Position numbers and translations under genes: made by a program
Origin: Zonotrichia leucophrys gambelii
Lineage: Eukaryota; Chordata; Aves; Passeriformes; Passerellidae
Assembly: GCF_028769735.1 (NCBI RefSeq)
Contig: NW_026992306.1
Coordinates: 62,001-126,000 of the forward strand
Direction: 5' to 3'
DNA length: 64,000 nt
Notes under the pieces: model-generated
Database searches by the model: none
What the model was told of the DNA's origin: nothing
Seen by the model: only the letters and a program-made list of their open reading frames with translations
Part shown: positions 12,117-51,420 of the stretch, piece by piece
How the letters are laid out: each line of letters starts with the position of its first letter
Position numbering within the stretch: the stretch's first letter is position 1

Positions 12117-15100
12117 TTATCCAACAATCAGATCTCCCTGAGGTACACAGCGTGTTCTTCCATCTTTTTGCATTATCCACCATGTGCAACCTGGTCCCTG
12201 AGCAAAAACAACCCCACAAATGGGTTTGTCTGTATTCGAGGCAGGATTAATCCAAACTGTCTTCCCTAATAAACGTCTGACATGTACCACTGGGACTTTG
12301 TCTCCATCTACTCTCTGCAAAGGCTCAGACTGGGCAGGGCCCACTCAGTTAGTTGAGCCTCGGGTGTAACCTAACCAGGTGGCTTTTGCCAGATGCTGCT
12401 CCCAGTTCTTGAAAGATCCCCCACCTAATGCTTTCAATGTGGTTTTTAACAGTCCGTTGTACCTCTCCACTTTGCCTGCAGCTGGTGCATGGTAGGGGAT
12501 ATGGTACACCCACTCAATGCCATGTTCCCTAGCCCAGGTGTTGATAAGGCTGTTCTTGAAATGAGTCCCATTGTCTGACTCGATCCTCTCAAGGGTACCA
12601 TGTCTCCACAGGACTTGCTTTTCCAGGCCCAGAATGGTGTTCCGGGCCATAGCGTGAGACACAGGGTTGGTCTCCAGCCATCCAGTGGTGGCTTCCACCA
12701 TGGTCAGCACGTAGCGCTTGCCCTGGCGTGTCTGGGGCAGTGTGATGTAGTCAATCTGCCAGGCCTCCCCATACTTGTACTTGGACCACCGCCCACCGTA
12801 CCAGAGGGGCTTCACTCGCTTGGCCTGCTTGATGGCAGCACACGTCTCACAGTCATGGATAACCTGAGAAATACTGTCCATGGTTAGATCCACCCCTCGG
12901 TCTCGTGCCCACTTATAGGTGGCATCTCTGCCCTGGTGGCCTGAGGCATCATGGGCCCATCGAGCTAGGAATAACTGTCCCTTATGTTCCCAATCTAGGT
13001 CTATTTTGGACACCCCTATCTTTGCAGCCTGGTCTACTTGTTCATTGTTTTGGTGTGCCCCATTAGCTCTACTCTTGGGTACATGGGCATCTACATGGCA
13101 GACCTTCACAGGCAGTTTCCCTACCCTGGTAGCAATGTCTTTCCACTCTTCAGCAGCCCAAATTGGTTTTCCTCTACGCTGCCAGTTAGCCTTTTTCCAC
13201 CTCTCCAGCCATCCCCACAGAGCATTGGCTACTATCCATGAATAGGTAGAGCTTTGGCCACTTCTCTCTCTCAGCAATGTCCAGGGCCAGTTGAACAGCT
13301 TTGAGTTCAGCAAGTTGGCTTGGTCCACCTTCTCCTTCAGTGGCCTCTGCCACCTGTTGTGTGGGGCTCCATACGGCTGCTTTCCACTTCCGGTTCATTC
13401 CCACAATGCGGCCAGAACCATCAGTGAAAAGAGCGTATTGTGTATCTTCTGCTGGCAGTTGGTTGTATGGTGGAGCTTCTTCAGCCCGTGTCACTTCTTG
13501 TTCCCCTTCATCAGCGAGACCAAAGTTTTCACCTTCCGACCAGTTTGTAATTATTTCCAGAATCCCAGGGCGATTCAGTTTTCCAATACGGGCGCGCTGT
13601 GTGATAACAGCAATCCATTTGCTCCATGTAGCAGTGGTGGCATGATGCGTAGAGGGAAACTTTGCTTTGAACATCCACCCCAGCACTCGTAGTCGGGGTC
13701 CCAGGAGGAGTTGTGCTTCAGTGCCTATTATCTCTGAGGCAGCCTGGACTCCTTCATAGGCAGCTAAGATTTCCTTCTCTGTGGGAGTGTAGTTGGCTTC
13801 AGAGCGTCTGTAGCTTCGACTCCAGAATCCCAGTGGTCGGCCTCGAGTATCCTCAGGCACCTTCTGCCAAAGGCTCCAGGACAAGCCATGGTTCCCGGCT
13901 GCAGAGTAGAGCATGTTCTTCACCTCTGGTCCTGTCCTGACTGGGCCAAAGGCTACAGCATGAGCGATCTCCTGCTTGATCTGTGCAAAGGGTTGTTGCT
14001 GCTCAGGGCCCCAATGGAAAGTGTTCTTCTTACGGGTGACCAGGTAGAGAGGGCTGACGATCTGACTGTATTTGGGAATGTGCATCCTCCAAAAACCTAT
14101 GGCGCCTAGGAAAGATTGTGTTTCTTTCTTGCTGGATGGTGGAGACATTGCTGTGATCTTGTTGATAACATCGGTGGTAATCTGACGCTGTCCATCTTGC
14201 CACTTCACTCCCAGGAACTGGATCTCTTAAGCAGGTCCCTTGACTTTGCTCTTCTTGATGGCAAAGCCAGCTTTTAGGAGAATCTGGATGATTTTCTCCC
14301 CTTTCTCGAACGCCTCTGCTGCTGTCTTCCCCCACACAATGATTTCATCAATATATTGCAGGTGATCTGGAGCCTCACCCTTTTCCAGTGCAGCCTGGAT
14401 CAGTCCGTGGCAGATGGTGGGGCTGTGCTTCCACCCCTGGGCCAGTCAGTTCCAGGTGTACTGCACTCCCCTCCATGTGAAGGCAAACTGAGGCCTGCAT
14501 TCTGCTGCCAGAGGAATGGAGAAAAATGCATTGGCTATGTCTATAGTGGTGTATCACGTTGTTGCCTTGGACTCCAGCTTGTACTGGAGCTCTAATATGT
14601 CTGGCACAGCAGCGCTCAGGGGTGGGGTCACTTCATTCAATGCATGATAGTCCACAGTCAATATCCATTCTCCTTCAGATTTTCGCACAGGCCAAATGGG
14701 GCTGTTGAAGGGGGAGTGGGTCTTGCTGACCACCCCTCGGCTCTCCAGCTGACGGATCATTTTGTGGATGGGGATCACAGCATCTCGATTCGTTCGGTAC
14801 TGTTGGCCGTGCACTGTTGAGGCGGCAATTGGTACTCGTTGCTCTTCCACCTTCAGGAGACCTACTGCAGATGGGCTTTCTGACAGTCCAGGCAAGCTGT
14901 TCAACTGCTTGATACCCTCTGTCTCTACAGCAGCTATTCCAAATGCCCATCTGAGTCCCTTTGGGTTTTGAAATACCCACTTCGAAGGTGGTCTATGCCC
15001 AAAATACACGAGGCCTCTTGGCCAGTCACAATAGAGTGTTTCTTCCACTCATTCCCAGTCAGGCTCACATCAGCTTCCACCAAAGTGAAATCCTGGGATC

Positions 15101-15284: not shown

Positions 15285-16010
15285 CTAAGCCTGGTTATCC
15301 TTCTTTCCCTGGGCATATGTCTTGGATGTTCCTTCAAGGGGATCAGACATGTCATCATCATCATACCTGGCAGTTTGGCTACGGGCAACTGGAGCTGCTT
15401 TCCTTCTGGTGGCTTCCTTCAATTCACGCACCTGTCGTGCCAGAACAGCAGTAGGTTTTCCATCCCACCTCCCCATGTTTTCTCCACAATCACGCAGGTA
15501 GAACCACAGCTCATTTCATGGGGTGTACCATCTCTCACCATCTGGGAAACATCTGCCTGGGATACCACAACCTCTGATCCGTACTGCCGAGATTTGGAGA
15601 AGGTCTTTAATCTCCTCTCTGAGCTTCTTATGATTCTTCTCTATCTCATCCTCTAATTTCTGCAGACGTGTTTCTACTGCTGCAATTCTGGTATGTGTTG
15701 GGCCGTGCAGAGCATCTGCATATGCTCGCAGCTTCCTTGCCATGTCAAGCACAGTCTCATCCCTCTCATCCCTCTTCATGATGGCTAAGGCAGAAGCATA
15801 TTCATGTGGCCCAAGTCGCACAAGTTTTTGCCACATCACAGACGTGCATGGTACCAAGTCTGGGTTCCTCGTTGTTACATCATCTGAGAAGATAATCTCT
15901 GCCACGGCCATTTCTCTCAGGCATTGGATCCCTTGCTCTATGGTCTTCCACTGAGTTTGTTGCATATAAAGATCATCTGCACACAGGTATCTTTGTGCAA
16001 CACTGTCCAA
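15285..16010 (-). pseudogene. gag: ERVL-like gag, C-terminal half
   Basis: The 15516-16010 frame contains a helical stretch with heptad character (residues about 108-145: RLQKLEDEIEKNHKKLREE), which suggests a coiled coil. It continues in another frame at 15285-15476 with a short acidic DDDD motif and basic residues. No CCHC knuckle is visible. It follows the N-terminal gag frame at 16156-17115 and precedes the protease. Confidence 0.6.
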
Positions 16011-16155
16011 GACCCGTGACCAGAGGCTGTGTGGATTAGCCCCCCCTCATCATTCTATGGTCGATGACAGGATCCTGTGCCATGGATCCCAAATGCCTGG
16101 CTTCAGTGCCATCCAAAACTGTAGCCTCGCCTGCAGCATCCCAGAGATGGACCAG

Positions 16156-17115
16156 CTAACTAATTATGGATTCATCAGGTTGTTGGGTGTAATCCTTCCT
16201 TAGGCCACAAAGGTCCTTCAGGGAAAAGGACTCAATATTTGCATCTGATCTTGCACCTGCTGCTTTGACTCTTGATTTTATGTCAGGAGGCATTGAGGTT
16301 CCTTCTCCTGTATCACCATCATCATCATCATCATCATCATCTACTGGTCGATTGGTCTTGTCTGTGCATTTCCCACTTCTAGTATTGGCAGCAACAGCCA
16401 TGGGTTTAGATGCTGGCTTAGGCTCACGGTCTGGTCTGGCAGCTGGCTTCGAGCTTGGGCTGTTGGCTACAGCTTGAGTGACTGGGATAGCTGATTTATC
16501 TCCCTGCCCCCCTGCCTCTGTCTGCTGCCCTACACTATCTAACAAAGTGCGATAAGCATAGGCCAGGGCCCAGCTTATTGCAATTAGCCTTTTCTCTTTA
16601 GAATCGTCATGGCACTTCTCCTTTAGGTATTTCCCCACTTCAGCTGGGTTCTGAGTTTGTTCCCGTGGAAAATCCCAGTCTACAGGATCAGAAAATTCCT
16701 TCAGGGTTTGGCCTATTTTTTCCCATTCTCCACTCCACTCAGGATTTTTCACGCCTGCATCTTCTTCTGGGTCAGGGGTCTCACCACCTCCTCTGGATAT
16801 CTCAGCCCTCATTCTAGAGAAGCTGCAGACCATAAAGAGGAAGCTTACCAGATTAAATACCAGAAAGATGGTCTCTTTAACATTCAGCAGAAACTGAACA
16901 TTCTCAAAAAGTGACATAACCGATCCAAAGGAGAAGAGGGAAAGGGAAGGCTGGAAAGTCTCATTCTTGGCTCCTCCTCTAACAGACTGAGTGTAGTTAC
17001 TAATAAATTCCCAAAACGTACTGCTGGAATTGGGATGCAGGGTAGGATGAAGAAACCATAAACCATACATGTCGTAAACAGATGCCAGTATCTTTGTGAA
17101 CACTTTATAAACCAT
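16156..17115 (-). pseudogene. gag: ERVL-like gag, N-terminal half
   Basis: A 319-codon frame with a hydrophobic segment at about residues 70-100 (LLNVKETIFLVFNLVSFLF), a conserved-looking GQTLKEFSDPVDWDFPREQ region, a low-complexity middle and a run of eight aspartates from a CAT/ATC triplet tract at 16317-16341. It continues in a different frame at 16010. Its 5' end coincides with the LTR edge at 17116, so the native start and the 5' LTR of this element are lost. Confidence 0.65.
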
Positions 17116-17496
17116 TGACGAAGGAAGGAGACCAGGATATCAATTGATCATCACAAGCCCAATTTTATTGAACAGTACGGCGGGTTAAATACAGTTCATA
17201 ATGAACTTCATGCATATTGCAAAAGTTGAGCTCAGGATTGGTTAGTTACATATCAGCAGCTACACCTACTTCTGCATTCCTATGGTTTTACTTTTGATAC
17301 TTTCTACATATTCTTAGGAGATATTCAGGACTAATCTTTACTCCCTTTCCTCATGTTGCAGCAAGGTCACTGATTGCTAATTGCTGACATCTCCTTTCAG
17401 CTTGCTGACTGCTGATTTCCCTCTCTTAGCTTAACCAGCTGTATTATGTCAGCATGGCCTTTCTCAGCTAACCAACTATTAATAAAACTCTCCACA
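17116..17496 (-). mobile_element. 3' LTR of the provirus
   Basis: It starts TGTGGAGAGTTTTATTAA on the minus strand and ends CGTCA. The env stop lies about 100 nt inside its U3. It abuts the ERVL-like gag frame at 17115. Confidence 0.85.
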
Positions 17497-18020
17497 TTTC
17501 CCCCGTTTTCTTCTTGAGCAAGGAGATTAGTTTGCCAGGTTTTTGCTATTGTACGGCTGACCATGTTTTGAATACAATTAAAGATACAAGGCATAATAAG
17601 CAAAACCAGTAAAATTACACCCAGCAGTCCTATAGCATAGATCACAAGGTTCCTCAGCCATGGCCCAAGTCCTAAGCTTTTAAGCCATTCGTCAATTTCT
17701 AAACCTTCTTCTTCCTTAAGATTGTGAAGTCCCTGTTGCAGTTCTTTTATCTTAGTGTGAATGGACACTGAATGATCAGATAGATTCATGCAACACATTC
17801 CTTCAAACTCTTCACATCCATGTCCCTGTGCTAAGAGCAAAAAATCTACGGCAGCTCTGTTTTGCAAAACAGCATGGTTAACACTCTGCACATCTGCGGT
17901 TAGCATGTCTAGAATTTGTGATGTCTTGTTCAGCTCATCCTTTGCCCAGCACCCTAATTGCTTTGCTAAATTCATAGCCTTATTGGCAGATCCTCCCGGC
18001 AAGATAGTTGAAACAACCAC
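17397..18020 (-). CDS. env: Env transmembrane subunit, CX6CC type
   Basis: This frame of 207 codons carries the hallmarks of a gamma/alpha-type TM subunit: an immunosuppressive-domain-like helix (LQNRAAVDFLLLAQGHG), followed by CEEFEGMCC, which is a CX6CC motif able to link covalently to the surface subunit. A membrane span follows at about residues 128-150, then a cytoplasmic tail of about 55 residues. The N-terminal glycine- and alanine-containing hydrophobic stretch would be the fusion peptide region. It continues from the surface-subunit frame at 18021-18554, but a frame break and stop separate them, so env is not intact. The tail reads into the LTR U3. The env type contrasts with the betaretrovirus-like pol. 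Confidence 0.85.
   Translation of the reverse strand: MVVSTILPGGSANKAMNLAKQLGCWAKDELNKTSQILDMLTADVQSVNHAVLQNRAAVDFLLLAQGHGCEEFEGMCCMNLSDHSVSIHTKIKELQQGLHNLKEEEGLEIDEWLKSLGLGPWLRNLVIYAIGLLGVILLVLLIMPCIFNCIQNMVSRTIAKTWQTNLLAQEENGGNVESFINSWLAEKGHADIIQLVKLREGNQQSAS
17497..17515 (-). other. Polypurine tract
   Basis: AAGAAGAAAACGGGGGAAA on the minus strand directly precedes the 3' LTR. It lies inside the env reading frame. Confidence 0.75.
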
Positions 18021-18789
18021 CTATTTGAATGTGCCCCAAAACTGTGGATCTCCTATCGAGCCGCAGTCTAAGTCATGTATGCTACGTCTCTTTCTGTTAA
18101 AATTTTGACTCAGCTGCATTAGCAAGGACACATTAGGGTGAAACAATGACAATTTTCCTAAATAACAGGGTCCACCCTGTGGTCTAGCTGGTATACCATT
18201 CCACGCCCTGTCTCCACAAATTAAAAATATTCCTGTGGGTAATTTCATTGGTGCTGTGATTTTTGTGCTGTTACATTTACTGTAATGCTGCGGAGAGATT
18301 CCACACACATTCAGGAATGAATCTAGGGTGGCCCATTTTTCTTTCGGTCTGTTTGAAAATTGAAAGCTAAACCATCCACCAGTTGAAGTGTTAGACAAAC
18401 TGGCGTTTGTACTGTCAAAAAGATCCAATTCCTCAGGAGGAGAATACAAAGAGGTGTTGAGTGATTGGATCAGTAAACATTGACGATAGCCATCACTCTG
18501 ACCTGCAGTATATCCTTGTTGCCCTGGCAATTTGATGTTTGACATGTTAGGCATACATAAGGTTTGATTTTTTTATCAAACTGCAAAATTCTCCGGGAGA
18601 CCACACTGGAAGTCCCACCAGGCATGTTCGAAATGGGTTAGTGACTCCTCCAAGACTAAGACAAAACGATGATTGGTTAATTTGATTAGCAAGTGTTACC
18701 CATAAATTTTTTCTTGGCTGACTAAAACGTGTTATTTCTACTGCTTCACTTGCTACAGCATTGAGCAATATAACAAGAACAAACCTCAT
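18021..18789 (-). pseudogene. env: Env signal peptide and surface subunit, frame-broken
   Basis: The start at 18789 (MRFVLVILLNAVASEAV) is a good signal peptide. The 80-codon first frame runs into the next frame from 18554. That frame has several N-glycosylation sequons (for example NTS, NAS, NTS, NST, NVS) and ends close to a furin-type site RKRRS (about 18080). Together they are only about 255 codons, short for a retroviral SU. The start codon overlaps the stop of accessory frame B as ATGA. Confidence 0.75.
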
Positions 18790-19508
18790 TTTTTCTTCTG
18801 CTTGCTTTGTTTTTCCTTTCTTCGCTGTCTTTTCCCTGGTTTGCTAGATTGTCTATTGTAAGACTGAATCAATTTTTGAATACACTGATCTAATTCTAAA
18901 TCAGCATCTTTGATTACAGGTATAGCGTGAGATAAGTTTGAAGGCAAATCAGCTTTACAGCGAGCTGCTATGATGCGTGAGGCTTTATTAATTTCAAATA
19001 TTCTAAGTGTTCCCTGCAACTTCCACCTAAGATATGCTATAATTGCTTGTTCTGCACTCTCAAAAAGCTGTAATCCTGTCCGTCCTGGCAGGCCAGTACT
19101 TTGTTCAAGAGCTCTAACCCAGATAAAATTTCGAATCCACTTTCCAAAACAAGGTATACACCATAAATATCCTATTGACCTTTGTGAATACCAATAAACC
19201 TGATTACAATCTGCACAATGCAAAGCTACCCATGCATAGCACTTATCATTATCCCTTTTGCAAACATAACAAGGAAGCGAATGTAAGTAAGGACCAGTAT
19301 AAAAGTCTGTCTCTTCAATCCAATGCAACCAATTCAATGGTGGTGATTGCAAAGCCTCTTTAGCTTTTTTACTATATGAGGCTAATAGCTCAAGGTCTTT
19401 CTTTAACACAAGACGTATTTTATTTTGCAATCGTAGTTCTTGTTCGTTATCTTCCTCAACAACTATATCCTCTCGAGGATCCCACAACTGTAAAAGTGTC
19501 CTAATCAT
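18786..19508 (-). CDS. Accessory frame B, cysteine-cluster protein with basic tail
   Basis: An intact 240-codon frame between pol and env. Layout: an acidic N-terminus (residues 1-25), a helical stretch (26-55), a seven-cysteine cluster at 19149-19271 (C-X2-C-X6-C-X7-C-X2-C-X15-C-X2-C, with an AWxAL core and conserved W/Y around the last pair), a conserved SAEQAIIAYLRW element, a QCIQKL element, and a very basic tail of about 20 residues (KRQRRKEKQSKQKKK) that could serve as a nuclear localisation or RNA-binding signal. The cysteines suggest zinc binding. It shares all of these with frame A just upstream, so the two are duplicates. It ends in an ATGA overlap with env. Position between pol and env is where complex retroviruses carry regulatory genes. 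I do not recognise the family. Confidence 0.75.
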   Translation of the reverse strand: MIRTLLQLWDPREDIVVEEDNEQELRLQNKIRLVLKKDLELLASYSKKAKEALQSPPLNWLHWIEETDFYTGPYLHSLPCYVCKRDNDKCYAWVALHCADCNQVYWYSQRSIGYLWCIPCFGKWIRNFIWVRALEQSTGLPGRTGLQLFESAEQAIIAYLRWKLQGTLRIFEINKASRIIAARCKADLPSNLSHAIPVIKDADLELDQCIQKLIQSYNRQSSKPGKRQRRKEKQSKQKKK

Positions 19509-19537
19509 AGAAAGTTAATTAGCAATCACCAATAGCC

Positions 19538-20253
19538 TTATTTAGACAAGGTCGTTCCCTTTTTTGCCTTCCTTTTCTTATCTATCTTCAATCTTGCTGC
19601 TGCTACTTTTACTGGTCCTGCCACTTGCAAACTCAATTTCTGCAACTTTTCAATGCAGCAGTCTAGTGCCCTTTCAGGATTTCCCTTGAAGGGCCCTACA
19701 ATTGAGTGCTGTGTTAAAGGTACTACTTTCCTACACCTTACAGAAACTATGCGTGATTTACTTTGAACCTTAATTCTATTCACGACACATTGTACTTCCC
19801 ATCGATAATAAGCAAGAATTTTTTGTTCAGGAGACTCATAAAGACTTAGAGCTATATACGCATTTTGCCCATTTGTCTCCTTAATTCATCTTGCCAACTT
19901 TTACCCCACCGGTGCTCGTGTTCACAAGTGTGACACCACAAATCCCACAATAATGATTGTTCTAACCAAAAAGTTCTATCACAACCCCCACAACGTAGGG
20001 CTGTCCAGGCAGCACAATGTGGATCGTGACAGTCAAGGCAATGTTCCTTTGCTGGATTTGTTAAACGAAAAGTTGATAATGAGTCAATAAAACCAATCAG
20101 CTCCTGGGTTGTCTGACAGTAGTGTGTCAGTGCTCTGTCCACCGCTTTCGAGTATCCCTTCAGCTGTAGCAGTAGCGGTTGTAGGACCAAAAGCAGTTTC
20201 TTTCCCAGTCGCTCCCTGTCCTCCTCCGTGAGGTGGTCCACCAAAGGCTGCAT
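19538..20253 (-). pseudogene. Accessory frame A, homologue of frame B with one frameshift
   Basis: From the ATG at 20253, inside the 3' end of pol, the frame runs to 19852. The homology to B continues in another frame to 19538, so one single-base indel near 19865 separates the halves. The total of 716 nt corresponds to about 238 codons, close to the 240 of B. Shared features in the same order: a LVLxxxLxxLxxYSK helix, the seven-cysteine cluster at 19924-20040 (C-X2-C-X4-C-X7-C-X2-C-X15-C-X2-C with AWTAL), ESPEQKILAYYRW, an SRI motif, a CIEKL element and a lysine-rich tail (KKRKAKKG). The frame overlaps pol by 170 nt. An upstream ATG at 20469 exists but would add residues with no counterpart in B. 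B starts 30 nt after A ends. Confidence 0.65.
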
Positions 20254-22830
20254 CAAAAGCAGGTTTAGTCCACTTAGCAGGCACCCACAGAGGCCCTGTA
20301 GGTGAGGAAACACAAAGATACCCCCGACCCCAATATAATACTTTTGCAGGTTTTTCCCATAATCCTGTACTGGGGTTCTTATACTTAACCCAGACCTCTG
20401 TTTCCTTAGTATTTTCCTGACCTGACCTTGGATGATGTTTAATTGCAGGAGGGGTATCATCTTCCCCAAAAATACATAAATGATTAATTACATACAACAC
20501 CTTAGCCAAACATGCTTGTGGATCTCTCAAATCTTGATGTTTTTCAATATATTGCTTAAGGGTACCGTTTGCTCTTTCCACTATTGCCTGTCCAGTAGGG
20601 GAGTGTGGAATACCTGTCACATGCTTAACTGACCACTGATTCAAAAATTTCTGAACCCTAGCACTCACATAAGCTGGAGCATTATCCGTTTTGATACTCT
20701 TTGGAACTCCCATGAGAGCGAAGCCACTTAACAGGTGTCTGATAACATGTATAGCTTTCTCTCCTGCCTGAGCCGTAGCCCATATGTAATGACTATACGT
20801 GTCTATAGTGACGTGCACACACTTGACTTTACCAAATCTAGCTATATGTGTAACATCCATTTGCCATTTCTCATTTATTTCTAAACCCCGAGGATTAACT
20901 CCAATGCCTAAACCTATTCCACCATTATGATAACTACATGTTGGACATGCTCTAACAATAGCCTTAGCTTCTGACAAACTCAATTCAAAGTGCTTTGCTA
21001 ATCCTTTTGCATTTTGATGATATCTACTATGTGCTTCTCTGGCCAATGTATGCTTATCAATAGGACAAGAGTTATCAATGGGTAGGGTAACCAATTTATC
21101 TGCACGTTCATTTCCTTCTCCTAAACCTTCAGACCATTTATGGCTCCTAATATGAATCACCGAATACGCTGCATTTCTCTCCCGTAGAGCTTTCCTTAAT
21201 TGTACCAACAACTCATACAATCGTTTATTATTCACTTCCTTAATTGCTGCTTCCTCTATTCGTCTGACTACTCCTGCAACGTACATAGAGTCTGTAACCA
21301 CATTTAAAGGTCCCTGTAAGTTGGATACTGCCCATACTACTGCTAACAATTCCAAAGTTTGTAAACTATCCGCAGGGTCTGCTGTGATGATTTGATGTTT
21401 CCATTGTCCTTTTTCTTGCCAAGTGACAGCAGCACGCCTTGATTTCTTTCCTGCATCTGTAAAGGCTGTAATAGCTCCTTCTATAGGGCGTTCTTCTCTC
21501 AAGGGAGAGTAATCCAGTTCCATTCTGTCATCCATTGCAAAACTTTAGGCACTAATTTGCTGGTATCTACTTTAGCAGACAATGTCAATAATGCTTCCTG
21601 TAAATCCTTCGAATTAATCAGGTACCAGTCCAAGGTTTCTTTTTCCATAGGCAATCTAATGGTAGCAGGTTCTCTACCATTCACTTCAAGAATTCTAAGA
21701 TGCCCCTTTTTGATTAATGCAGCCAATTGTTCAATTTTTGAACATATTGTTTTCTTATGCTGTAATGGTGGAGACAACCATTCCAACACCCGTATCTCCC
21801 CCGTTTTCTTTTGTTGTTGAGAGAGAGCACCAAGCAGGTGGCAAGGGCTATTCCAGATAGTAAGGTCAATAGGGTGGTCGAGTTGTCGACGAGACACGTA
21901 CCCCTGTTGTACACAGTTACTGATTTGCTGCAAAGCAAGACGATGCTCCTTTGTCAGGTATACAGGAGTAGTAGGGTCAACACCCTTTAACAAAGGCCGT
22001 AGGGCTTCTAACAAATGATTTGGTATTCCCACAATGGGTTTCAGGCACTGTAAGTCTCCCAACAACTTCTGTGCATCATGTAGAGTCCTAATGTCCAATT
22101 GTAATTCCAATTTTTGAGGTATCACTATTTGATCCATCAAAGTCCATCCCAAATATTTCCAGGGCTTTGTAGTTTGAATTTTCTCTGAAGCAATAACAAG
22201 TGAATATGCAGCAAGAGTATTTTTAATAATGTCAATCTGCAAAGAGGAAAATGGTTGTTGCTGTGCAAACAAAATATCGTCCATGTAATGATATATTATA
22301 GTTGCTGGCCATCTGCGACGTAGTGGCTGTAATGCTGCATCAACATAAAGCTGACATAAGGTCGGAGAATTACGCATGCCTTGCGGAAGAGATGTCCATT
22401 CAAATCTTTTATCTGGTTCTCCATGATTTATTGCTGGTAAAGGCAAATCTCTTCGCATCATTAGGATGCAGGGCAATGGTGAAGAAACAATCCTTTAGGT
22501 CAATAATTAAGAGTGGCCAGTGTTCTGGAATCATAGCTGGATTTGGAAGACCAGGCTGTAAGGCCCCCATAGGTTCCATTTGGTCATTTACAGCCCGCAA
22601 ATCATGTATTAAACGATATTTCCCTGATTTCTTTTTGATCACAAAAATAGGTGTATTCCAAGGGCTCGTGGAAAGTTGTAAATGTCCCTTTGAATATTGT
22701 TCCTCTACCAATTCATGAGCATGCATAAGGCTTTCCCCTTTTAGTGGCCATTGCTTAACCATCACCGGTGTATCCGTCTTCCAGGTGAGTGGAATGGGGA
22801 AAGTCCAAGCAATGGCAATTACCCCAAAGG
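20084..22830 (-). pseudogene. pol: Betaretrovirus-like pol (RT, RNase H, integrase)
   Basis: Read leftwards: an RT start typical of betaretroviruses ([12 protein letters not shown] near 22770); RT fingers with [20 protein letters not shown] and [10 protein letters not shown] (22409-22765); a frame break near 22440; the active site YMDD at 22276-22287; WKYLGW and thumb/connection to about 21510; another frame break; then RNase H (FTDAGKK, LELLAV, VTDSMY, NERADKL, giving D-E-D-D) and integrase (HHCC zinc region, WQMDVTHI, KTDNAPAY, VERANG, with 35 residues between D and E). The integrase frame at 20084-21535 is 483 codons and uninterrupted. Two frameshifts inactivate the gene. The 3' end overlaps accessory frame A. 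Confidence 0.85.
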
Positions 22831-23540
22831 GTGCTGATTAGTTAACACCACTCCCAATTGTGTTAAAATGTCCCTTCCAATTAAACAGGAGACTGTAGGA
22901 GGCAGTTGCACAATTGAAAACACAGCAGATATTTGTTGATCCTCAATGCACACAGACAAAGAAGGTGACCTGCTTGCCAATGTAAATCTTCCTACTCCTG
23001 TGAGCATGTTTGCTGATGGGAATAGAGGCCAATGTTGTGGCCATGCTTCTGGAGAAATAATGCTGGTATCTGCTCCTGTATCCAATAATCCATAAAGGGT
23101 TATGCTTTGATGCCCATAAGTAATTTTAACTTTTTGCTTTGGTCTATTTTGTAAATCCACAGTTAAAAGCGTAACATCAGTAGAGCCAAAACCTTTTTCA
23201 TCCCGTGTTTGCCCAGTAAATGGTTGTATTCCCAATGTCATTTGTGATAGTGGTACCAATTGTGCAATGCGTTGTCCTTTTATTATTTTAATTGGAGGAT
23301 AAAGGGTGTAGGCCATGATTTGTATTTCCCCTGTAAAGTCTGCATCAATAACTCCAGGCAAAACAAATAATCCCAACATAGTTGTAGAAGAGCGTCCTAA
23401 TAATAATGCTCCACATGTTTGTCCATTTAATATAAGAGGACCCTTTACTCCAGTTGGTATTTTCTCAGGCCGATTCGTCATTAGTGTGACATCTACTGCT
23501 GCTGATAAGTCTAAACCGAAGCTCCCTGTTGTTGCAGGTT
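22819..23540 (-). CDS. pro: dUTPase-protease (pro frame)
   Basis: The frame carries dUTPase motifs in order: [10 protein letters not shown] (just upstream of the first ATG at 23481, reached only by frameshift from gag), [29 protein letters not shown] and KGFGSTD. A retropepsin follows with active site [11 protein letters not shown] and a later GRD motif near the C-terminus. A dUTPase fused before protease is a betaretrovirus trait. The frame relation to gag and pol fits two successive ribosomal frameshifts, though I see no textbook slippery heptamer at the gag/pro junction. The frame is open throughout, and this is the best preserved enzyme of the provirus. Confidence 0.8.
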
Positions 23541-25521
23541 GCAGACAGGAGGTGGCAGCAATGTTGCGGCAGCTGGTGTCTCCGATGTCACGGCGGCAAC
23601 TTGTGTCTGGGCGCGGCCCCCGTGAAGCGCGCTCTGCTGATGGTTTCCCGACCGGCGCCTACAAGCTGTGGTATTGTGAGAGCTGTATCGGCAGTGCTGA
23701 CACCAAATGCCAGTCGCTCGGCAAGTTCGGCGTGTGTGTCCCTCATTGCTGCACCGCACCGGTAACACTTGATAAATGGCTTTGAACCTCCTTGCGTGAA
23801 TGAGCCACTTCGGAGAGGAGCAAGAGCAGCTAACACCTGATTCTGATTAGACTCTGCCTGCTTTTGTAACCCCAATCCTAATTCCTTTAGAGGTTCTGCT
23901 ATGAATGCCTGCGAAGCCGTTGGCATTAACGCCATTTGCTCTAATGCTTCCTCAATGGTCCAATTTGCTCCCAAAGTAGTTAACACTCTTTGGGTTGCTG
24001 GATTACTATTTTGCAAGGCACACTGCTTTAATAGCGCCCCCTTAAGGTAGTCTGCAACACCGGCCATCTATAGCATAGCTACCCTATCGATAAAATTCAA
24101 ATGATTCTTCTCTACCTTGCTTAATACCCATATAAGCTGGTAACCCTCCTGGCTCTTTAACCATATCTATTGCTGTACGCACTAATCGCATAGCCTCTCT
24201 AAGCTTATCCGGTCCCGATATCATCTGTGCCTCTGTACGCAAATATGCCCCTAAGCCCATGAGCTCATCCATTGTTACCCCATGTAATGGGTCTCCCTGG
24301 GCTCGTTGTACAGCAACTGATTCGTTTACTAACGCTTGCCAATGTGCATTAAACAATAACTGCTGATGTTGAGTGAATATTAAACGCACTATTCCTCTTA
24401 AATCATTTGGGCATAAAATCTGAGTATTAAAGAGATAATCTAACATTTGCCTAACAGGTTCACTTTTTACTCCAAACTGACTAACCGTAGAACGTAGCTG
24501 GGTTAACAACTTCCAATCTAAGGGAGAATATGCTGCTACATTATGCATTAAGTTCCCCTGTGCATCATACTGTGGTGTGTATGTAACCGGACATGCAAGG
24601 CTAGAAGCTATTTCCACTGCCTCGCCATCCCCCATTTGCATTGCTTCTTTTGCCACAGCAGCCCAAGCTTCCCTCCTTTGATTAGCCATTTCCCCCCATA
24701 GATCACGGCGTGCCCCTGGGATGGGAGCTGGCTCTTTGGGGGTGCTATGCTGCCGGCATTTCGGTGCAGACACCGAGTTTTCACACAGGGAAGCAGTGAA
24801 GCAGAGGCTGGCTCGCGTGGGGAAGCGACCCCCCGCCAGAGCTGACGTGAAACCGGAGCCGGCTCGAGCGGAGCCGGCGCGCGCGGGGGAGAGGGGCCCC
24901 CCCCGCTGGAGCTGTAACCGGAGCCGGCCTGCTCGGGGGTAGCGGCGGAGGCAAAGCTGGCGGCGGAGGCGAAGCTGGCTTGCTCCCACCCCCACCATCC
25001 GACCCGCCTGAAGCCGGCGGCGGAGGCAAAGCTGGTTTGCTCTTACCTCCCCCATCCGACTCGCCTTCCCCCTCTGACAAGGGGGGTGCAGACGGTTCCA
25101 CTATGTCTATAGGCAAATCCTCCACACCACTATGCTGGGGACTCTTAGGCATAAGTATCCTAGTTACAGAAGGTGCTAAGGGATCATCCTCACGACCATA
25201 TCCTATATTCCTCTTATGAGCTTCTGTCGCCCTTTCTGCTGCCTTTCTCTCAGAGACCTGCTGAAGTAACGTATTATACACCACCCGCCATAACTTCCTG
25301 AATTTCTTCGCTGACTTATCATCGCCTAATACTGTATCCAACACTATTTCCCCAAACTTTCTCCACTCTGATAGCTCATGAACTGTGTGCGGGTTACTAA
25401 ATATACCTTTAGCATGGCCGTAAGCTAATAACCCCTGTAACTCCTTTTTTAAATCTATCCCTTTTATTCCTCGCCTTTCTAAATATGAGGAGAAGAGATC
25501 GTATGCCGCTTGCCTATCCAT
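23511..25521 (-). pseudogene. gag: Betaretrovirus-like gag, frame-broken
   Basis: Matrix starts at 25521 (MDRQAAYDLFSSYLERRG, no glycine at position 2) with helical matrix-like sequence, then a PSAPPL late-domain motif and a proline/glycine-rich region. A frame break in the GC-rich stretch near 24800-24960 leads to the capsid frame (ends 24084). A frame change at about 24088 and a TAG at 24068-24070 interrupt capsid before the 24067-23588 frame. Nucleocapsid has two CCHC knuckles: the first (CYRC...GHTRRTC) is split by a frameshift near 23750, and the second (CQHCRYSSHNTTAC) is intact in the 23511-23768 frame. Confidence 0.8.
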
Positions 25522-25742
25522 ACCTATTAATCAGCGCGCGCTGTTGCAGCTCTCCAGGCTCCGGCGGCAGGTAGAGGCTTGAGTCACCGTTGTGATCCTC
25601 AAGGGTGCTTTTAAAATCCGGCACCGTCCCGGCTGCAAGGACCCTCACCCAACTTCCTCGACCATTGTGAGTTCCCTTTTTTCTTTTTAATCCGAGGAAA
25701 AAGGAAAGAGGTTCAACGTTGCTGCATCGTTGCCCGCAGCAT

Positions 25743-25760
25743 TGCCCGCATTCTCCACCA
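25743..25760 (-). other. Primer-binding site, possibly tRNA-Ala-like
   Basis: Two nucleotides inside the 5' LTR the minus strand reads TGGTGGAGAATGCGGGCA. The first nine bases fit the 3' end of an animal tRNA-Ala (complement TGGTGGAGA) and the rest matches imperfectly. It does not fit Lys, Pro, Trp or Leu primers. Confidence 0.5.
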
Positions 25761-25762
25761 TT

Positions 25763-26143
25763 TGTCGACGGAAGGAGACCAGGACATCAACTGATCATCA
25801 CAGGCCCAATTTTATTGATCAGTACGGCGGGTTAAATACAGTTCATAATGAGCTTCATACATATTGCAAAAGTTGAGCTCAGGATTGGTTAGTTACATAT
25901 CAGCAGCTACACCTACTTCTGCATTCCTATGGTTCTACTTTTGATACTTTCTACATATTCTCAGGATATATTCAGGAATAATCTCTACTCCCTATCCTCA
26001 TGTTGCAGCAAGGTCACTGATTGCTAATTGCTGACATCTCCTTTCAGCTTGCTGACTGCTGACTTCCCTCTCTCAGCTTAACCAGAGGCATTATGTCAGT
26101 ATGGCCTTTCTCAGCTAACCAACTATTAATAAAACTCTCCACA
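25763..26143 (-). mobile_element. 5' LTR of the provirus
   Basis: It has the same length and termini as the 3' LTR (TGTGGAGAG ... CGACA). The flank at 26144 is minisatellite sequence, and the paralogous unoccupied site is readable at about 40616 on the other strand. Confidence 0.85.
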
Positions 26144-27660
26144 GCTGTGCCCTGTTCCCTTATTCCCATGGGGCTCTGCAGGGTCACAGTGGTGGTGTCA
26201 CATTGGATTCTTGCTTCCATGAGGCCCCGATGTTTCACACTGGCCTCTTGTTTCCATGGGACTCCAGAGTGTCACAATAGTCCCTTGCTTCCATGAGGCC
26301 TGGCAGTGTCACAGGGGTGTCCTTGGTGCTGTAGTGTCACAATGGACCCTTGGTTTCATGGAGACTCACAATGTCAGAAGGGTCTCCTTGGTTCCATGAG
26401 GTCCTGCAGAGCCCCTTGATTCAATGAGGCCTCCAAGTGTTACCATGGCCTTCAGGATTCGATAAGGCCCCTCAATGTCACAATGGACCTTTGATTTCAT
26501 GGGGTCCTGCACTGTTCCATGAATCCTTAGTTCCATGGGGCCCTGGGGTGTCACAATGGATTCCTTGGTTCCATGGTGCCACACAATGTGGCAATTGCCC
26601 TTTGGCCTGCTGGGACTGCAGAGTGTCACAATGGTTCCTTGTTTCCATGACACGTGGAGTGTCATAATGGTCTCCATGATCCCATAAGGCCTTGCAGTGT
26701 CACAACAGACCATTGGTTTCATGGAGCACCATAGTGTCACTATGGTCCCATTGGCTCCACAAGGCATTGAAGTGCCAAAAAGGCCCTTTGGTTCCACAAG
26801 GCCTCTAAGTCTAAAAATGGCCTCCAGGTTCTATGAGGCCCTGCTTTGTCACAATGGACCTTGGCTTCCACGATGTCCCAGAGTGTCACAATGGTATCCT
26901 TGGTCCCACAGTGTCAGAATGGACCCTTCATGCCATGAACACCCACAGTGTTCACGGCAGTGCCCTTGATTCCACCAGGCCCTGCCATGCTCTAATGGCC
27001 CCTTGGTTCCAGTGCAGTCCCAGTGGTCCAGTGGTCCCCTTGGTTCCAGTGTCAAGAGTCTCCATTGTTCCCTGAGGCCCCACAATGTCTCTGTGCTCCG
27101 CTTGGTTGCACAGGGCCCCACAGTGGAACAATGGACTCTTGGTTCCATGAGGTTCCTCAGTCCCAATGGTCTCCTTGGATCTGCAGTGTCACAGTGGCCC
27201 CTTGGCTCCATGTGGCCACGCTGTGTCACAATGGCTCATGGTTCCATGAGGCCACACAGTTTAACAAGGGAACCTTGGATCCATCAGGCCTTTCTGTGTC
27301 ACAAGGGACTTGTGGTTCCATGAGCTCTCACACAGCCAGCAGCAGTGTCCTTGGTTCTGCAGAGTCACCATGGACCCTTTGTTCCATGAGGTCTTGCAGT
27401 AGTACATGTTCACCTTGGTTTCATGAGGTTCTGCAGTGTCACAATGGACCCATTGGTTCCAAGAGATTTCTCAGGGTCACAATGGTCTCCTTGGATCCGC
27501 ACTATCACAATGGACCATTGGTTCAATGTGGCCCCAAGATGCCAAAATGGATTTTGGTTTCATGGTGTTCTGCTGTGGCAACATGGACCCTTTGTTCCAT
27601 GAGTTTGCACAGTGTCACAGCTGACTCCTTGGTTCTGTGAGGAACCACGGTCAGCAAACC
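26144..27660 (+). repeat. Minisatellite of about 37 bp, inverted copy
   Basis: A tandem array of diverged units around GTGTCACAATGGNCCNTTGGTTCCATGAGGCC. It is the reverse complement of the arrays at 39240-40616 and 51420-52790. Long open frames exist on both strands because many units keep length near a multiple of three; I do not regard them as genes. Confidence 0.85.
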
Positions 27661-28720
27661 TCTGAAATATCAGAATAAGGCTCTTTAACACTGATTTGCT
27701 ATTTCAGAGGGGATCATTTATTCAGGCCTGAGGTCTGGTGAGAGAAAATTGCAAAGCTTACATGTACATGTGATTCTACCAGCATGTTGCTTATACACAG
27801 TCCCTAAATGTGAATTACAATTTACTCATTTTTATGAAATCCACCCAAAGGTCCCAGATTCACTCCATGTTTTCTCTATCCCTGCACCTTGATGCCAGAT
27901 GTCTTCTACTTTTCTTCCAACCATCCTTGCTGGGAAAGCAGCCCCTGCATGCCTTGTTCCTATGCTGAAAGTTCACAGGCAGGGTAAAAATGGACTGAAC
28001 CATTTTGGTATCAGCCCCAGGCTTTGTGTGGGCAGGCAGAGGCAGGCAGGAGGCAGAGCTTCAGCAAAGGAAGGGCCAGCCAGGTGGGGCAGCCGGGGGA
28101 TGCCGACAGCCTGCAGGGACAGAGGCGCAGGGCAGGGACAGCGTAGCACAGCCTGGCTGCACAGGGCACAGCATGTGCAGCAGCTGCAAGACAGCCCTGC
28201 CAGAGCCAACCTGGGCAGCACTTTGGCCATGGCTGCTGGGCCTGGGCCTGAGGCAGCAGCAGGAGACAAGTGACCCTTGCAGGCCTGGGGCCTCATTGCC
28301 TCCTTGTCCCTGCTCAGCAGCCTGGCAGGGGCCGCCCCATGCTCCTGCCCTTGCCATTGCACATCCCCACATGCCAGTGCCCATCCCGGCAAGAGCCCTG
28401 AGCAAGGAGGGAGGGACAGCATCTGCCTGGCCAGGGGCTGGGGCTCAGGCCTTGGCCCTTTGCATTCCTCAAACACATCCAGCTTTGCTCAGCCCCAGAG
28501 ACACCTTGGCCTTGTTTGTCCCCAGCTGTCATCACTTCCTCCAAGGTTCTGCTCTAACTGGAACCTGGGGACACTTTCCCAGTTGTGTCCCTCAGTGGGA
28601 CCCATTAAAATTTCAAGAAAGTTCAGAGTTTCAATTTAACTTTGAGTTCTTGAGAAGTTTTTTTAAGATGTTCTCAGCAACTGAGTCTGGTGTAAACAAC
28701 ATCAAAGCCCTGTGAGAATC
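27661..28720 (-). repeat. Inverted copy of the GC-rich block at 38170-39240
   Basis: The block runs from the CTGAAATAGC/AATAAA-like edge beside the minisatellite to the GATGTAAACAACACCAAAGCC edge, in reverse orientation to unit 1. Open frames of 110-240 codons here are products of GC content and occur in all copies with different stops. No gene is supported. Confidence 0.75.
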
Positions 28721-38169: not shown

Positions 38170-39240
38170 GCACAAGGACCTTAATGAGCCTCTCAGGGCT
38201 TTGGTGTTGTTTACATCAGACTCAGTCCCTGAGAGAGTGTTCAAAGAACTTCTCAAGAACTCAAATTTAAAATGAAACTTTGAAGTTTCTTGAAGTTTTT
38301 ATGGGTCCCACTGAGGGACATGAATCAAAAAGTGTCCCCAGGTTCCAGTTAGAGCAGAACACTGAAGGCAGTGATGACAACTGGGGACAAACAAGGCCAA
38401 GGTGTCTCTGGTGCTGAGCAAAGCTGGATGTGTTTTAGGAATGCCAAGGGCCAAGGCCTGAGCCCCAGCCCCTGGCCAGGCAGATGCTGTCCCTCCCTCC
38501 TTGCTCAGGGCTCTTGCCGGGATGGGCACTGGCATGTGGGGATGTGCAATGGCAAGGGCAGGAGCATGGGGCGGCCCCTGCCAGGCTGCTGAGCAGGGAC
38601 AAGGAGGCAATGAGGCCCCAGGCCTGCAAGGGTCACTTGTCTCCTGCTCCTGCCTCAGGCCCAGGCCCAGCAGCCATGGCCAAAGTGCTGCCCAGGTTGG
38701 CTCTGGCAGGGCTGTCTTGCAGCTGCTGCACATGCCTGCGCCCTTTGCAGCCCAGGCTGTGCTACGGTGTCCCTGCCCTGCGCCTCTGTCCCTGCAGGCT
38801 TTCAGCATCCCCTGGCTGCCCCACCTGGCTGGGCCCTTCCTTTGCTGACAGCCCTGCCTCCTGCCTGCCTCGGCCTGCCCACACAAAGCCTGGGGCTGAT
38901 ACCAAAAGGGTTCATTCCATGTTTACCCTGCCTGTGAACTTTCAGCACAGGAACAAGGCATGCAGGGGATGCTTCCCCAGCAAGGATGGATGGAAGAGAA
39001 GAAGAATACGTCTGGCTCAGGGGTGCAGGGATAGAGAAAACAAGGAGTGAATCTGGGAACTTGGGGTGGGTTTTATGGAAATGGGTAAATTGTAATTCAC
39101 ATTTAGCAACCGTATGTGAGCAATACACTGGTAGAATTACACTTTCATGGGAGGTTGGGAGTTATCCCATGTTGGACCTCAAGCCTGAATAAATGACCCC
39201 TCTGAAATAGCAAATCAGTGGTAAGGAGCCTTATTCTGAT
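38170..39240 (+). repeat. GC-rich block, unit 1
   Basis: Parallels 50340-51420 and, inverted, 27661-28720. It ends with CAAGCCTGAATAAATGA, an LTR-like poly(A) context, before the minisatellite. Origin unknown. Confidence 0.55.
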
Positions 39241-40630
39241 ATTTCAGAGATTTTCTGACAATGGTTCCTCACAGAACCAAGGAGTCGGCTGTGACACTGT
39301 GCAAACTCATGGAACAAAGGGTCCATTGTGACACAGCAGAACTCCATTGAACCAAAATCCATTTTGGCACCATGGGGCCACATTGAACCAATGGTCCATT
39401 GTGATACTGCAGATCCGAGGACACCATTGTGACCCTGAGAAACGTCTTGGAACCAAGGGGCCATTGTGACACAGCAAGGCCTGGTGGAACCAAGGGTCAC
39501 TTATTAAACTGTTTGGCCTCATGGAACCATGAGCCCTTGTGACAAAGCTTGGCCAAGTGGAGCCAACGTGCCACTGTGACACTGTGGATCCAAGGAGACC
39601 ATTGGGACTGAGGAACCTCATGGAGCCAAGAGTCCATTGTTCCACTGTGGGGCCCTGTGAAACCAAGCGGAGCACAGAGACATTGTGGGGCCTCATGGAA
39701 CAATGGAGGCTCTTGACACTGGAACCAAGGGAACCACTGGACCACTGGGACTTCACTGGAACCAGGGGGCCATTAGGCAGGGCCTGGTGGAATCAAGGGC
39801 ACTGCCGTGAACACTGTGGGTGTTCATGGCATGAAGGGTCCATTCTGACACCGTGGAACCAAGGATACCATTGTGACACTCTGGGACATCATGGCAGCCA
39901 AGGTCCACTGTGACACAGCAGGGCCTCATAGAACCTGGAGGCCATTTTTAGACTTAGAGGCCTTGTGGAACCAAAGGGCCATTGTGGCACTTCAGGGCCT
40001 TGTGGAGCCAAGGGGACCATAGTGACACTGTGGGGCTCCATGAAACCAATGGTCTGTTGTGACACTGCAAGGCCTTATGGGATCATGGAGACCATTGTGA
40101 CACTCCAGGTGTCATGGAAGCAAGGAACCATTGTGACACTCTGCAGTCTTGGCAGGCCAAGGGGCAGTTGTCACACTGTGTGGCACCATGGAACCAAGGA
40201 GGCCATTGTGACACTCCAGGGCCCCATGGAACTAAGGATTCATGGAACAGTGTGGGACCCCATGGAACCAAAAGTCCATTGGGACATTGTGGGGCCTCAC
40301 GGAATCCTGAAGGCCATGGTAACACTTGGAGGCCTCATTGAATCAAGGGGCTCTGCAGGGCCTCATGGAACCAAGGAGACCCTTCTGACATTGTGAGTCC
40401 CCATGGAACCAAGGGTCCATTGTGACACTGCAGCACCAAGGAGACCCCTGTGACACTGCCAGGCCTCATGGAAGCAAGGGACCATTGTGACACTGGAGCC
40501 CCATGGAAACAAGAGGCCAGTGTGACACATCTGGGCCTCATGGAGCCAAGGATCCAATGTGACACCACCACTGTGACACTGCAGAGCCCCATGCGAATAA
40601 GGGAACAGGGCACAGCTCTGGTTGGCTTGG
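39241..40630 (-). repeat. Minisatellite of about 37 bp, unit 1
   Basis: Units of the form CCATTGTGACACTGCAGGGCCTCATGGAACCAAGG. The reverse complement of the array at 26144-27660. Confidence 0.85.
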
Positions 40631-50339: not shown

Positions 50340-51420
50340 GCACAAGGACTTTAATGAGCCTCTCAGGGATTTGGTGTTGTTTACATCAGACTCAGTCCTG
50401 AGAGAGTGTTCAAAAAACTTTCAAGAACTCAATGCTAAATTGAAACTCTGAAGTTTCATGAAGTTTTTATGGGTCCCACTGAGGACTAAAACTCAGAAAG
50501 TGTCCCCAGGTTGCAGTTAGAGCAGAACACTGGAGGCATTTGATGACAGCTGGGGACAAACAAGGCCAAGGTGTCTCTGGTGCTGAGCAAAGCTGGATGT
50601 GGTTGAGGAATGCAAAGGGCCAAGGGCTGAGCCCCAGCCTCTGGCCAGGCAGATCCTGTCTCTCCCTCCTTGCTCAGGGCTCTTGCCAGGATGGGCACTG
50701 GCATGTGGGGCTGTGCAATGGCAAGGGCAGGAACATGGGGCGGCCCCTGCCAGGCTGCTGAGCAGGGACAAGGAGGCAATGAGGCCCCAGCCCTGCAAGG
50801 GTCACTTGTCTCCTGCTCCTGCCTCAGGCCCAGGCCCAGCAGCCATGGCCAAAGTGCTGCCCAAGGTGGCTCTGGCAGGGCTGTCTTGCAGCTGCTGCCC
50901 ATCCCTGTGCCCTGTAAGCCCAGGCTGTCCCACGGTGTCCCTGCCCTGCACCTCTGTCCCTGCAGGCTGTCGGCATCCCCTGGCTGCCCCACCTGGCTGG
51001 CCCCTTCCTTTGCTGACAGCTCTGCCTTCTGCCTGCCCCTGCCTGCCCTCACAAAGCCTGGGGCTAATACCAAAAGGGTTCATTCAATTTTCCCCCTGCC
51101 TGTGAAGTTTCAGCAGAGGAACAAGGCATGCAGGGGCTGCTTTCTCAGCAAAGATGGTTGGAGGAGAAGAAGAAGACATCTGGCTCGAGGGTGCAGGGAT
51201 GGAGAAAACAAGGAGTGAATCTGGCAACTTGGGGTGGGTTTTATGGAAGTGGGTAAATTGTAATTCACATTTAGGGACTGTATATAAGGAACACCCTGGT
51301 AGAATTCCATGTCCACATAAGGTTAGAAGTTATCCCATGTTCGACCTTAAGCCTGAATAAATGATTCCCTCTGAAATAGCAACTTAGTGTTCAGGAGCCT
51401 TATTCTGATATTTCAGAGAT
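50340..51420 (+). repeat. GC-rich block, unit 2
   Basis: The counterpart of 38170-39240, again ending with an AATAAA context before the minisatellite. Confidence 0.55.

What the first reader, a model, noticed from the sequence alone, without database searches (positions are those of the whole stretch)
18786..20253. Two homologous, unrecognised accessory genes between pol and env of an avian betaretrovirus-like provirus
Frames A (19538-20253) and B (18786-19508) are about 238 and 240 codons. Both have a YSK-containing helix, a seven-cysteine cluster with identical spacing apart from one gap (C-X2-C-X4/6-C-X7-C-X2-C-X15-C-X2-C), AWxAL, an E-Q-x-I-x-A-Y-x-R-W element, a C-I-x-K-L element and a lysine-rich tail. 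Simple betaretroviruses have no such genes. The basic tail and cysteine cluster recall nucleic-acid-binding regulators (inference). Retention of seven cysteines in both copies suggests selection before insertion.
Basis: partly seen in the sequence, partly recalled or inferred. Interest (0 to 1): 0.87.

Follow-up and report, generated by a model that had tools for sequence, protein, structure and literature searches.

The report
Duplicated accessory genes in bird retrovirus
Between the polymerase and envelope genes of an old, broken bird-type retrovirus lie two distantly related extra genes, each with the same cysteine cluster and lysine-rich tail, that convincingly matched no known family searched and look like real viral accessory proteins.

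Summary
Mostly confirmed. A minus-strand provirus (LTRs 25757-26143 and 17111-17496, 94.6% identical) with a beta-like gag-pro-pol and an avian-type env carries two paralogous frames between pol and env. B (19508-18786) is an intact 240-codon frame; its stop overlaps the env start. A starts at 20253 but is not one open frame: it stops after 133 codons and its second half lies in another frame (19885-19538). A/B protein homology is far above shuffles (z about 15 for each half), yet blastn finds no DNA match and 30 of 74 shared residues use the same codon, as independent draws would give (mean 30.9). So the pair diverged to near synonymous saturation under protein-level constraint, mostly before this insertion (LTR distance 0.054). 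The highest-scoring acceptor-like site of 694 AG sites lies 42 nt before A's ATG. No convincing Pfam, NCBIfam, PHROG or PDB sequence match; structure models were poor. Other copies and the large protein database could not be reached, so spread and prior description are untested. Best reading: a duplicated accessory gene family expressed with env; a zinc-stabilised nucleic-acid-binding regulator is likeliest, but that is inference.

The parts
25757..26143 (-). 5' LTR of the provirus (limits of the BLAST match)
   Evidence: 387-nt match to the other LTR, 94.6% identity
23511..25521 (-). gag, in several frames (broken)
   Evidence: ORFs; Gag_p24 3.5e-33; frame changes
22819..23658 (-). pro frame: dUTPase followed by aspartyl protease
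   Evidence: dUTPase 9.1e-21, RVP 8.5e-19
20084..22837 (-). pol: RT, RNase H, integrase, in three frames (broken)
   Evidence: Pfam; integrase best PDB matches 7usf and 3jca, E 3.4e-67 and 1.3e-66
20295..20317 (-). acceptor-like polypyrimidine tract ending in CAG; predicted first exon base 20295
   Evidence: rank 1 of 694 AG sites on the sense strand of the provirus, 42 nt before A's ATG
19852..20253 (-). gene A, first half: ATG at 20253, 133 codons, overlaps the 3' end of pol; now ends in a stop
19924..20040 (-). seven-cysteine cluster of A
   Evidence: pattern match, residues 72-110 of the first-half frame
19538..19885 (-). gene A, second half, in a different frame: EQKILAYYRW, CIEKL and lysine-rich tail
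18786..19508 (-). gene B: intact 240-codon frame
19149..19271 (-). seven-cysteine cluster of B
   Evidence: pattern match, residues 80-120
18789..18893 (-). basic C-terminal tail of B (13 K/R and 2 D/E in the last 35 residues)
17397..18789 (-). env: ATG at 18789 overlaps the stop of B (ATGA); broken by a frame change and an in-frame stop; its end lies inside the 3' LTR
   Evidence: Avian_gp85 1.2e-17 and TLV_coat 2.1e-16
17111..17496 (-). 3' LTR of the provirus (limits of the BLAST match)

Best explanation
A and B are two copies of one virus-borne accessory gene, duplicated and diverged while the virus was still replicating, and carried between pol and env of an avian beta-like retrovirus. They were most likely translated from an env-type spliced mRNA whose acceptor lies at about 20295: A from the first, weak-context ATG, B from a second weak-context ATG, and env last, its start overlapping the stop of B. 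Each protein probably has an N-terminal helix, a zinc-stabilised cysteine/tryptophan module, a helical EQxIxAYxRW segment and a lysine-rich nuclear or nucleic-acid-binding tail. The likeliest job is to bind viral (or host) nucleic acid and regulate viral RNA, the job that Rec and Rem do from within env in other betaretroviruses. Shown: the frames, the homology, constraint before insertion, and the breaks in the present copy. Predicted from consensus only: the acceptor. Inferred: translation scheme, zinc, nucleic-acid binding and regulatory role. I put about 0.9 on real accessory genes and about 0.35 on the regulatory role; the figure below is for the statement as a whole.
For: Homology of A and B at z about 15 for each half. 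No DNA-level match. 30 of 74 shared non-Met/Trp residues use the same codon; 2000 sets of independent draws from the codon usage of pol, pro and env frames average 30.9, and 1272 of them reach 30. LTR K2P distance 0.054, 20 substitutions of 386. No frame of 240 codons in 2000 first-order Markov sequences of 900 nt, one strand. The other five frames of the B stretch hold 11 to 26 stops. Compact layout: A overlaps pol, and B's stop overlaps the env ATG. Acceptor-like site ranked 1 of 694. No ATG in 20250-19890, seen in 1 of 1735 sliding windows of the provirus (stretch chosen after looking). Basic tails in both, 13 and 11 K/R of the last 35 residues. The env frame begins with a short signal-peptide-like stretch rather than a long Rec/Rem-like leader (by eye).
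Against: Only one copy was seen, and A is broken in it. No convincing family, PDB or structure-library match supports a zinc or nucleic-acid-binding fold (the nearest is Zn_ribbon_FGT1_1 on the first half of A at E 0.17, 12 bits against a cut-off of 27), and both structure models have mean pLDDT of 40-44. The codon test is uneven: the first half of A is at saturation (12 of 40 same; drawn mean 16.7), the second half shows more agreement than drawn (18 of 34; mean 14.4; 255 of 2000 draws reach it; against codons re-paired within the set, 0.9% of 2000 reach it). No good acceptor lies just before B or env (best scores 2.6 and 3.2 within 300 nt), and six ATGs stand between A's start and B's, so B needs leaky scanning, reinitiation or an unseen splice. 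That B is intact proves no selection after insertion: with 8 breaks elsewhere, 0.78 would be expected in B and the chance of none is 0.46.
Confidence: 0.45

Rival explanations
1. A and B are counter-defence adaptors, working like lentiviral Vif or Vpr/Vpx: the zinc module and helices bind a host restriction factor and a ubiquitin ligase. The duplication would reflect two targets.
For: Same genomic slot and overlap with the end of pol as vif, and a diverged paralogous pair like vpr/vpx (both recalled). [quoted passage not shown] In this provirus the LTRs differ by A in the 3' copy and G in the 5' copy at 8 sites against 1 the other way (two-sided binomial 0.039), which would fit editing of the virus, although the direction of the changes is not known.
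Against: No convincing Pfam match. The cysteine pattern is not the HCCH motif that I recall for Vif. A lysine-rich tail fits a nucleic-acid binder better. The same passage says that editing was much more limited in the medium ground finch. Nine A/G differences are few, and editing of the virus says nothing about what A and B do.
Confidence: 0.25
2. A and B descend from a host gene captured between pol and env and later duplicated, as reported for KIT ligand in a crocodilian ERV (PMC4299795, passages).
For: The insertion site fits that precedent. An origin from a fast-evolving host zinc protein could leave no profile match.
Against: No convincing Pfam match, although that library covers host families. 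No PDB sequence match below E 0.1.
Confidence: 0.12
3. Structural function: A and B are virion components (for example nucleocapsid-like helpers) rather than regulators.
For: Basic tail and cysteine cluster resemble nucleic-acid chaperones in composition.
Against: They are placed for spliced expression with env, not for Gag fusion. Their cysteine spacing is not that of a CCHC knuckle (recalled).
Confidence: 0.1
4. Chance open frames or a non-coding repeat.
For: None found beyond A being broken.
Against: Protein-level homology between two stretches with no DNA match, near-saturated synonymous sites, and no Markov sequence with such a frame.
Confidence: 0.02

Closest known systems
Avian beta-like (alpha-beta intermediate) ERVs, Jern et al. 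2005 (PMC1224870, passages)
   Same: dUTPase before protease, and no G-patch visible by eye after the protease frame; the paper reports dUTPase in 21 such chicken ERVs (many others lacked it) and a G-patch in no chicken betaretrovirus.
   Different: No accessory gene is named for them in the passages that I read; the paper says unknown accessory genes are hard to recognise.
JSRV orf-x and additional ORFs of bat betaretroviral ERVs (PMC3621094, passages)
   Same: Extra frames of unknown function in class II retroviruses; orf-x also lies within pol.
   Different: None in those passages is a duplicated cysteine-cluster pair between pol and env.
Rec (HML-2) and Rem (MMTV)
   Same: Betaretroviral regulators of RNA export (PMC3621094, passages); basic regions (recalled).
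   Different: Encoded within env; no seven-cysteine cluster (recalled).
Lentiviral Vif and Vpr/Vpx
   Same: Position between pol and env, zinc binding, paralogous pair (all recalled).
   Different: No sequence similarity detected by profile search; different cysteine pattern (recalled).
KIT-ligand capture in CrocERV29 (PMC4299795, passages)
   Same: Extra coding sequence between pol and env.
   Different: There the source gene is known; here no host match was found in Pfam or PDB sequences.

Membership tests
Betaretrovirus (genus); not filed as a member, called beta-like | dUTPase N-terminal to protease | tested here: met
   dUTPase at residues 38-160 and RVP at 170-272 of one frame
Betaretrovirus (genus); not filed as a member, called beta-like | Integrase closest to betaretroviruses | tested here: met
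   7usf and 3jca, E 3.4e-67 and 1.3e-66, ahead of 7jn3 and the avian sarcoma group at 4.2e-38; that the first two are MMTV is recalled. PDB sequences only, no tree.
Betaretrovirus (genus); not filed as a member, called beta-like | G-patch after protease | tested here: not met
   None seen by eye in the frames; PMC1224870 says no chicken betaretrovirus had one (passages)
Betaretrovirus (genus); not filed as a member, called beta-like | Lysine-tRNA primer binding site | tested here: inconclusive
   The sequence after the 5' LTR begins TGGTGGAG, unlike the lysine site as I recall it; the primer tRNA was not identified. The feature is from PMC3621094 (passages).
Class II ERV | 6-bp target-site duplication (PMC4299795, passages) | tested here: not met
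   No duplication at the LTR ends (by eye); the flanks look rearranged
Retroviral accessory gene | Frame outside gag/pro/pol/env, under protein-level constraint | tested here: met
Retroviral accessory gene | Expressed from a spliced mRNA | tested here: inconclusive
   Strong acceptor-like site before A, none before B; no transcript data
Retroviral accessory gene | Conserved across related proviruses | not testable with these tools
   No other copy reached (empty; the genome search unanswered nine times)
Vif | Profile match | tested here: not met
   B and the two halves of A against Pfam at E up to 1: only DUF3381 (0.11) and Zn_ribbon_FGT1_1 (0.17), both below cut-off
Vpr/Vpx | Profile match | tested here: not met
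   as above
Rec/Rem | Encoded within env | tested here: not met
   A and B lie upstream of the env ATG at 18789, apart from the overlap of B's stop with it
Captured host gene | Similarity to a host protein family | tested here: inconclusive
   No convincing Pfam or PDB match; bird proteomes not searched

The most novel reading that the evidence does not exclude
An undescribed family of zinc-cluster accessory proteins, duplicated within one virus like vpr/vpx, made an avian beta-like lineage a 'complex' retrovirus, and evolved independently to regulate viral RNA or to counter the editing defences of birds.
Probability: 0.3. Interest if true: 0.85.

Novelty: new variant of a known kind. Interest (0 to 1): 0.6.

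Why it matters
Bird alpha- and beta-like retroviruses are generally treated as simple (recalled). A duplicated accessory gene family kept under protein-level constraint would mean that accessory genes arose in this branch too, and would give a fossil probe of past conflict or RNA control in birds. PMC1224870 notes that unknown accessory genes are hard to recognise (passages); a pair with a nine-cysteine signature gives a concrete search model.

Tried and rejected
Chance frames: rejected. Known family: B and the two halves of A gave only weak hits: Pfam DUF3381 0.11 and Zn_ribbon_FGT1_1 0.17, PHROG 6955 at 0.054, NCBIfam none. PDB sequence hits lie at E 0.53-1.1 for B and 0.17-7.4 for the alignment; I read them as chance. 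Relatives: pattern-based scans found none in viral contigs (B; RNase H-integrase frame) or genome contigs (B), and tblastn none in phages; these collections are poor places for bird ERVs, so this says little. Intactness of B as proof of selection after insertion: rejected (P = 0.46). Third-position identity (0.35 and 0.42 against 0.50-0.55) is biased by the protein alignment, so I rely on codon tests. The first of these (expected 32.4) took codon usage from the same genes; one search used other frames but read one env piece out of frame; one search corrects that and is the one cited. The control on the acceptor, 4 of 500 sliding 60-nt stretches, only says that the site is unique: at steps of 15 nt four stretches hold any one site. 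Rfam: two sub-threshold matches, RSV_RNA in the RT region and sR52 at E 0.5; I read the first as shared RT coding sequence.

Literature: nine searches, each judged from titles and starts of abstracts of the listed papers: 25 listed of 36; 15 of 16; 20 of 296; 20 of 21; 5 of 5, on editing; 2 of 2; 2 of 2; 10 of 16; 4 of 4, on vpx/vpr. None was seen to describe such a gene pair; only open-licence PMC papers are held. I read passages of PMC6523648, PMC4299795, PMC3621094, PMC1224870 and PMC10536682; all other papers I saw only in listings. PMC4866542 is not held.

Full report
What is there. The finding lies in a provirus on the minus strand, bounded by LTRs at 25757-26143 and 17111-17496, 94.6% identical over 387 nt (20 substitutions of 386, K2P 0.054). 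The gene order along the sense strand is gag, pro (dUTPase then protease), pol (RT, RNase H, integrase), A, B, env. The integrase matches PDB chains 7usf and 3jca best (E 3.4e-67 and 1.3e-66; recalled to be MMTV), well ahead of the avian sarcoma virus group (4.2e-38). The surface piece of env matches Avian_gp85 (1.2e-17) and the transmembrane piece TLV_coat (2.1e-16). So this is a beta-like core with an avian-type env, like the alpha-beta intermediate ERVs that Jern et al. describe in chicken (PMC1224870, passages). I built no tree, two features of mammalian betaretroviruses or class II ERVs were not met (G-patch; target-site duplication), and the host species was not established, so I call it beta-like only.

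The two frames. B is an intact frame of 240 codons from ATG 19508; its TGA overlaps the env ATG at 18789. A begins at ATG 20253, inside the end of pol, and runs for 133 codons to a stop at 19852; the rest of the gene continues in a different frame, 19885-19538. I searched and compared its two halves apart.

Homology and constraint. Each half of A aligns with B far above 500 shuffles: 142.5 against a mean of 36.8 and maximum of 66.5, and 140.5 against 35.2 and 73.5; BLASTP gives 3e-8 and 3e-14. 44 of 111 and 35 of 104 aligned residues are identical. The seven-cysteine pattern occurs in these two places only in a six-frame scan of the window, and two more cysteines align. Yet blastn finds no A-B match at word size 7 and E up to 1, and among 74 shared residues other than Met and Trp, 30 use the same codon, where 2000 sets of independent draws from the codon usage of pol, pro and env frames average 30.9. 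The halves differ: the first is at saturation (12 of 40; drawn mean 16.7), the second shows somewhat more agreement (18 of 34; mean 14.4; 255 of 2000 draws reach it; under re-pairing of the same codons 0.9% of 2000 do). Overall, synonymous sites are near saturation while the protein is kept. With LTRs only about 5% apart, most of that divergence happened before this insertion, that is, in a replicating lineage. This is the strongest result here.

Present state of the copy. I count eight breaks outside B (three frame changes in gag, two in pol, one in A, one in env, and one in-frame stop in env; the assignment is mine, and the gag-pro and pro-pol changes are left out because they fit programmed frameshifts). 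At that density 0.78 breaks would be expected in B and the chance of none is 0.46. So the open frame of B says nothing about selection after insertion.

Expression. Scoring all 694 AG sites on the sense strand of the provirus with an approximate acceptor matrix (recalled frequencies), the top site (11.3; next 9.5) is at 20295, 42 nt before A's ATG. No such site precedes B or env (best 2.6 and 3.2 within 300 nt). Candidate donors in the leader score up to 7.7. A's ATG is the first after the acceptor, and both A and B have weak start contexts while env has A at -3 (sequences, judged by recalled Kozak rules). The stretch 20250-19890 has no ATG in any frame, seen in 1 of 1735 sliding windows of the provirus and in 0.05% of 2000 shuffles; I chose the stretch after seeing it. 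This suggests one env-type mRNA read by leaky scanning or reinitiation. Against it, six ATGs with short frames stand between A's start and B's. The scheme is inference.

What it might do. Both tails are basic (13 and 11 K/R of the last 35 residues), with short KRQR and KKRK motifs. The cysteine spacing, with CX2C pairs, suggests zinc, but this is not shown: the models are poor (mean pLDDT 40.3 and 43.8), the structure search has nothing better than E 2.3, and the one zinc-ribbon profile hit is weak (E 0.17). I favour a nucleic-acid-binding regulator because env appears to begin with a short signal peptide (by eye), leaving no visible Rec/Rem-like product, and because both paralogues keep a basic tail. 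A counter-defence role is the main rival: the slot and the paralogous pair recall vif and vpr/vpx (recalled); PMC6523648 reports strong APOBEC modification of zebra finch LTR elements, though much less in the medium ground finch (passages); and the LTRs of this provirus differ by 3' A / 5' G at 8 sites against 1 the other way, a possible editing trace of unknown direction.

Known or new. No convincing match in Pfam, PHROGs, NCBIfam or PDB sequences. In nine literature searches (listings capped) I saw no description of such a pair. Precedents for extra frames exist: additional ORFs in bat betaretroviral ERVs and JSRV orf-x (PMC3621094, passages) and host gene capture between pol and env in a crocodilian ERV (PMC4299795, passages). 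I could not reach the large protein database or any genome search. So whether other copies keep these genes, and whether they already sit in databases under some name, is open. I file it as a new variant of a known kind: retroviral accessory genes, of an apparently new family.

Noticed in passing
17397-17496: The open frame of the env end runs into the 3' LTR before its stop, so the env tail appears to be encoded in U3.
   Followed up: no
26144-28000; 38910-40616; 51078-52765: The 5' flank of the provirus lies in a diverged repeat block present three times in the window; both other copies stop matching within one base of the provirus edge. The 3' flank (16000-17110) has no match in the window and no target-site duplication is visible, so the site looks rearranged.
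   Followed up: partly
17111-17496 and 25757-26143: Of 20 LTR substitutions, 8 are A in the 3' copy and G in the 5' copy and 1 is the reverse (binomial 0.039): a possible trace of editing.
   Followed up: partly
22437-22724: Rfam RSV_RNA scores 68.8 bits, below its cut-off of 105, in the RT-coding region on the sense strand; probably shared RT coding sequence.
   Followed up: no
13186-14226: A second, separate retroelement stretch on the same strand with RT_RNaseH-type domains.
   Followed up: no
26210-27564: Degenerate repeats with recurring 'TTCCATGAGGCC'-like units next to the provirus.
   Followed up: no
25735-25762: The sequence after the 5' LTR begins with TGGTGGAG, unlike a lysine-type primer binding site as recalled; PMC3621094 gives lysine for betaretroviruses (passages). 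The primer tRNA was not identified.
   Followed up: no
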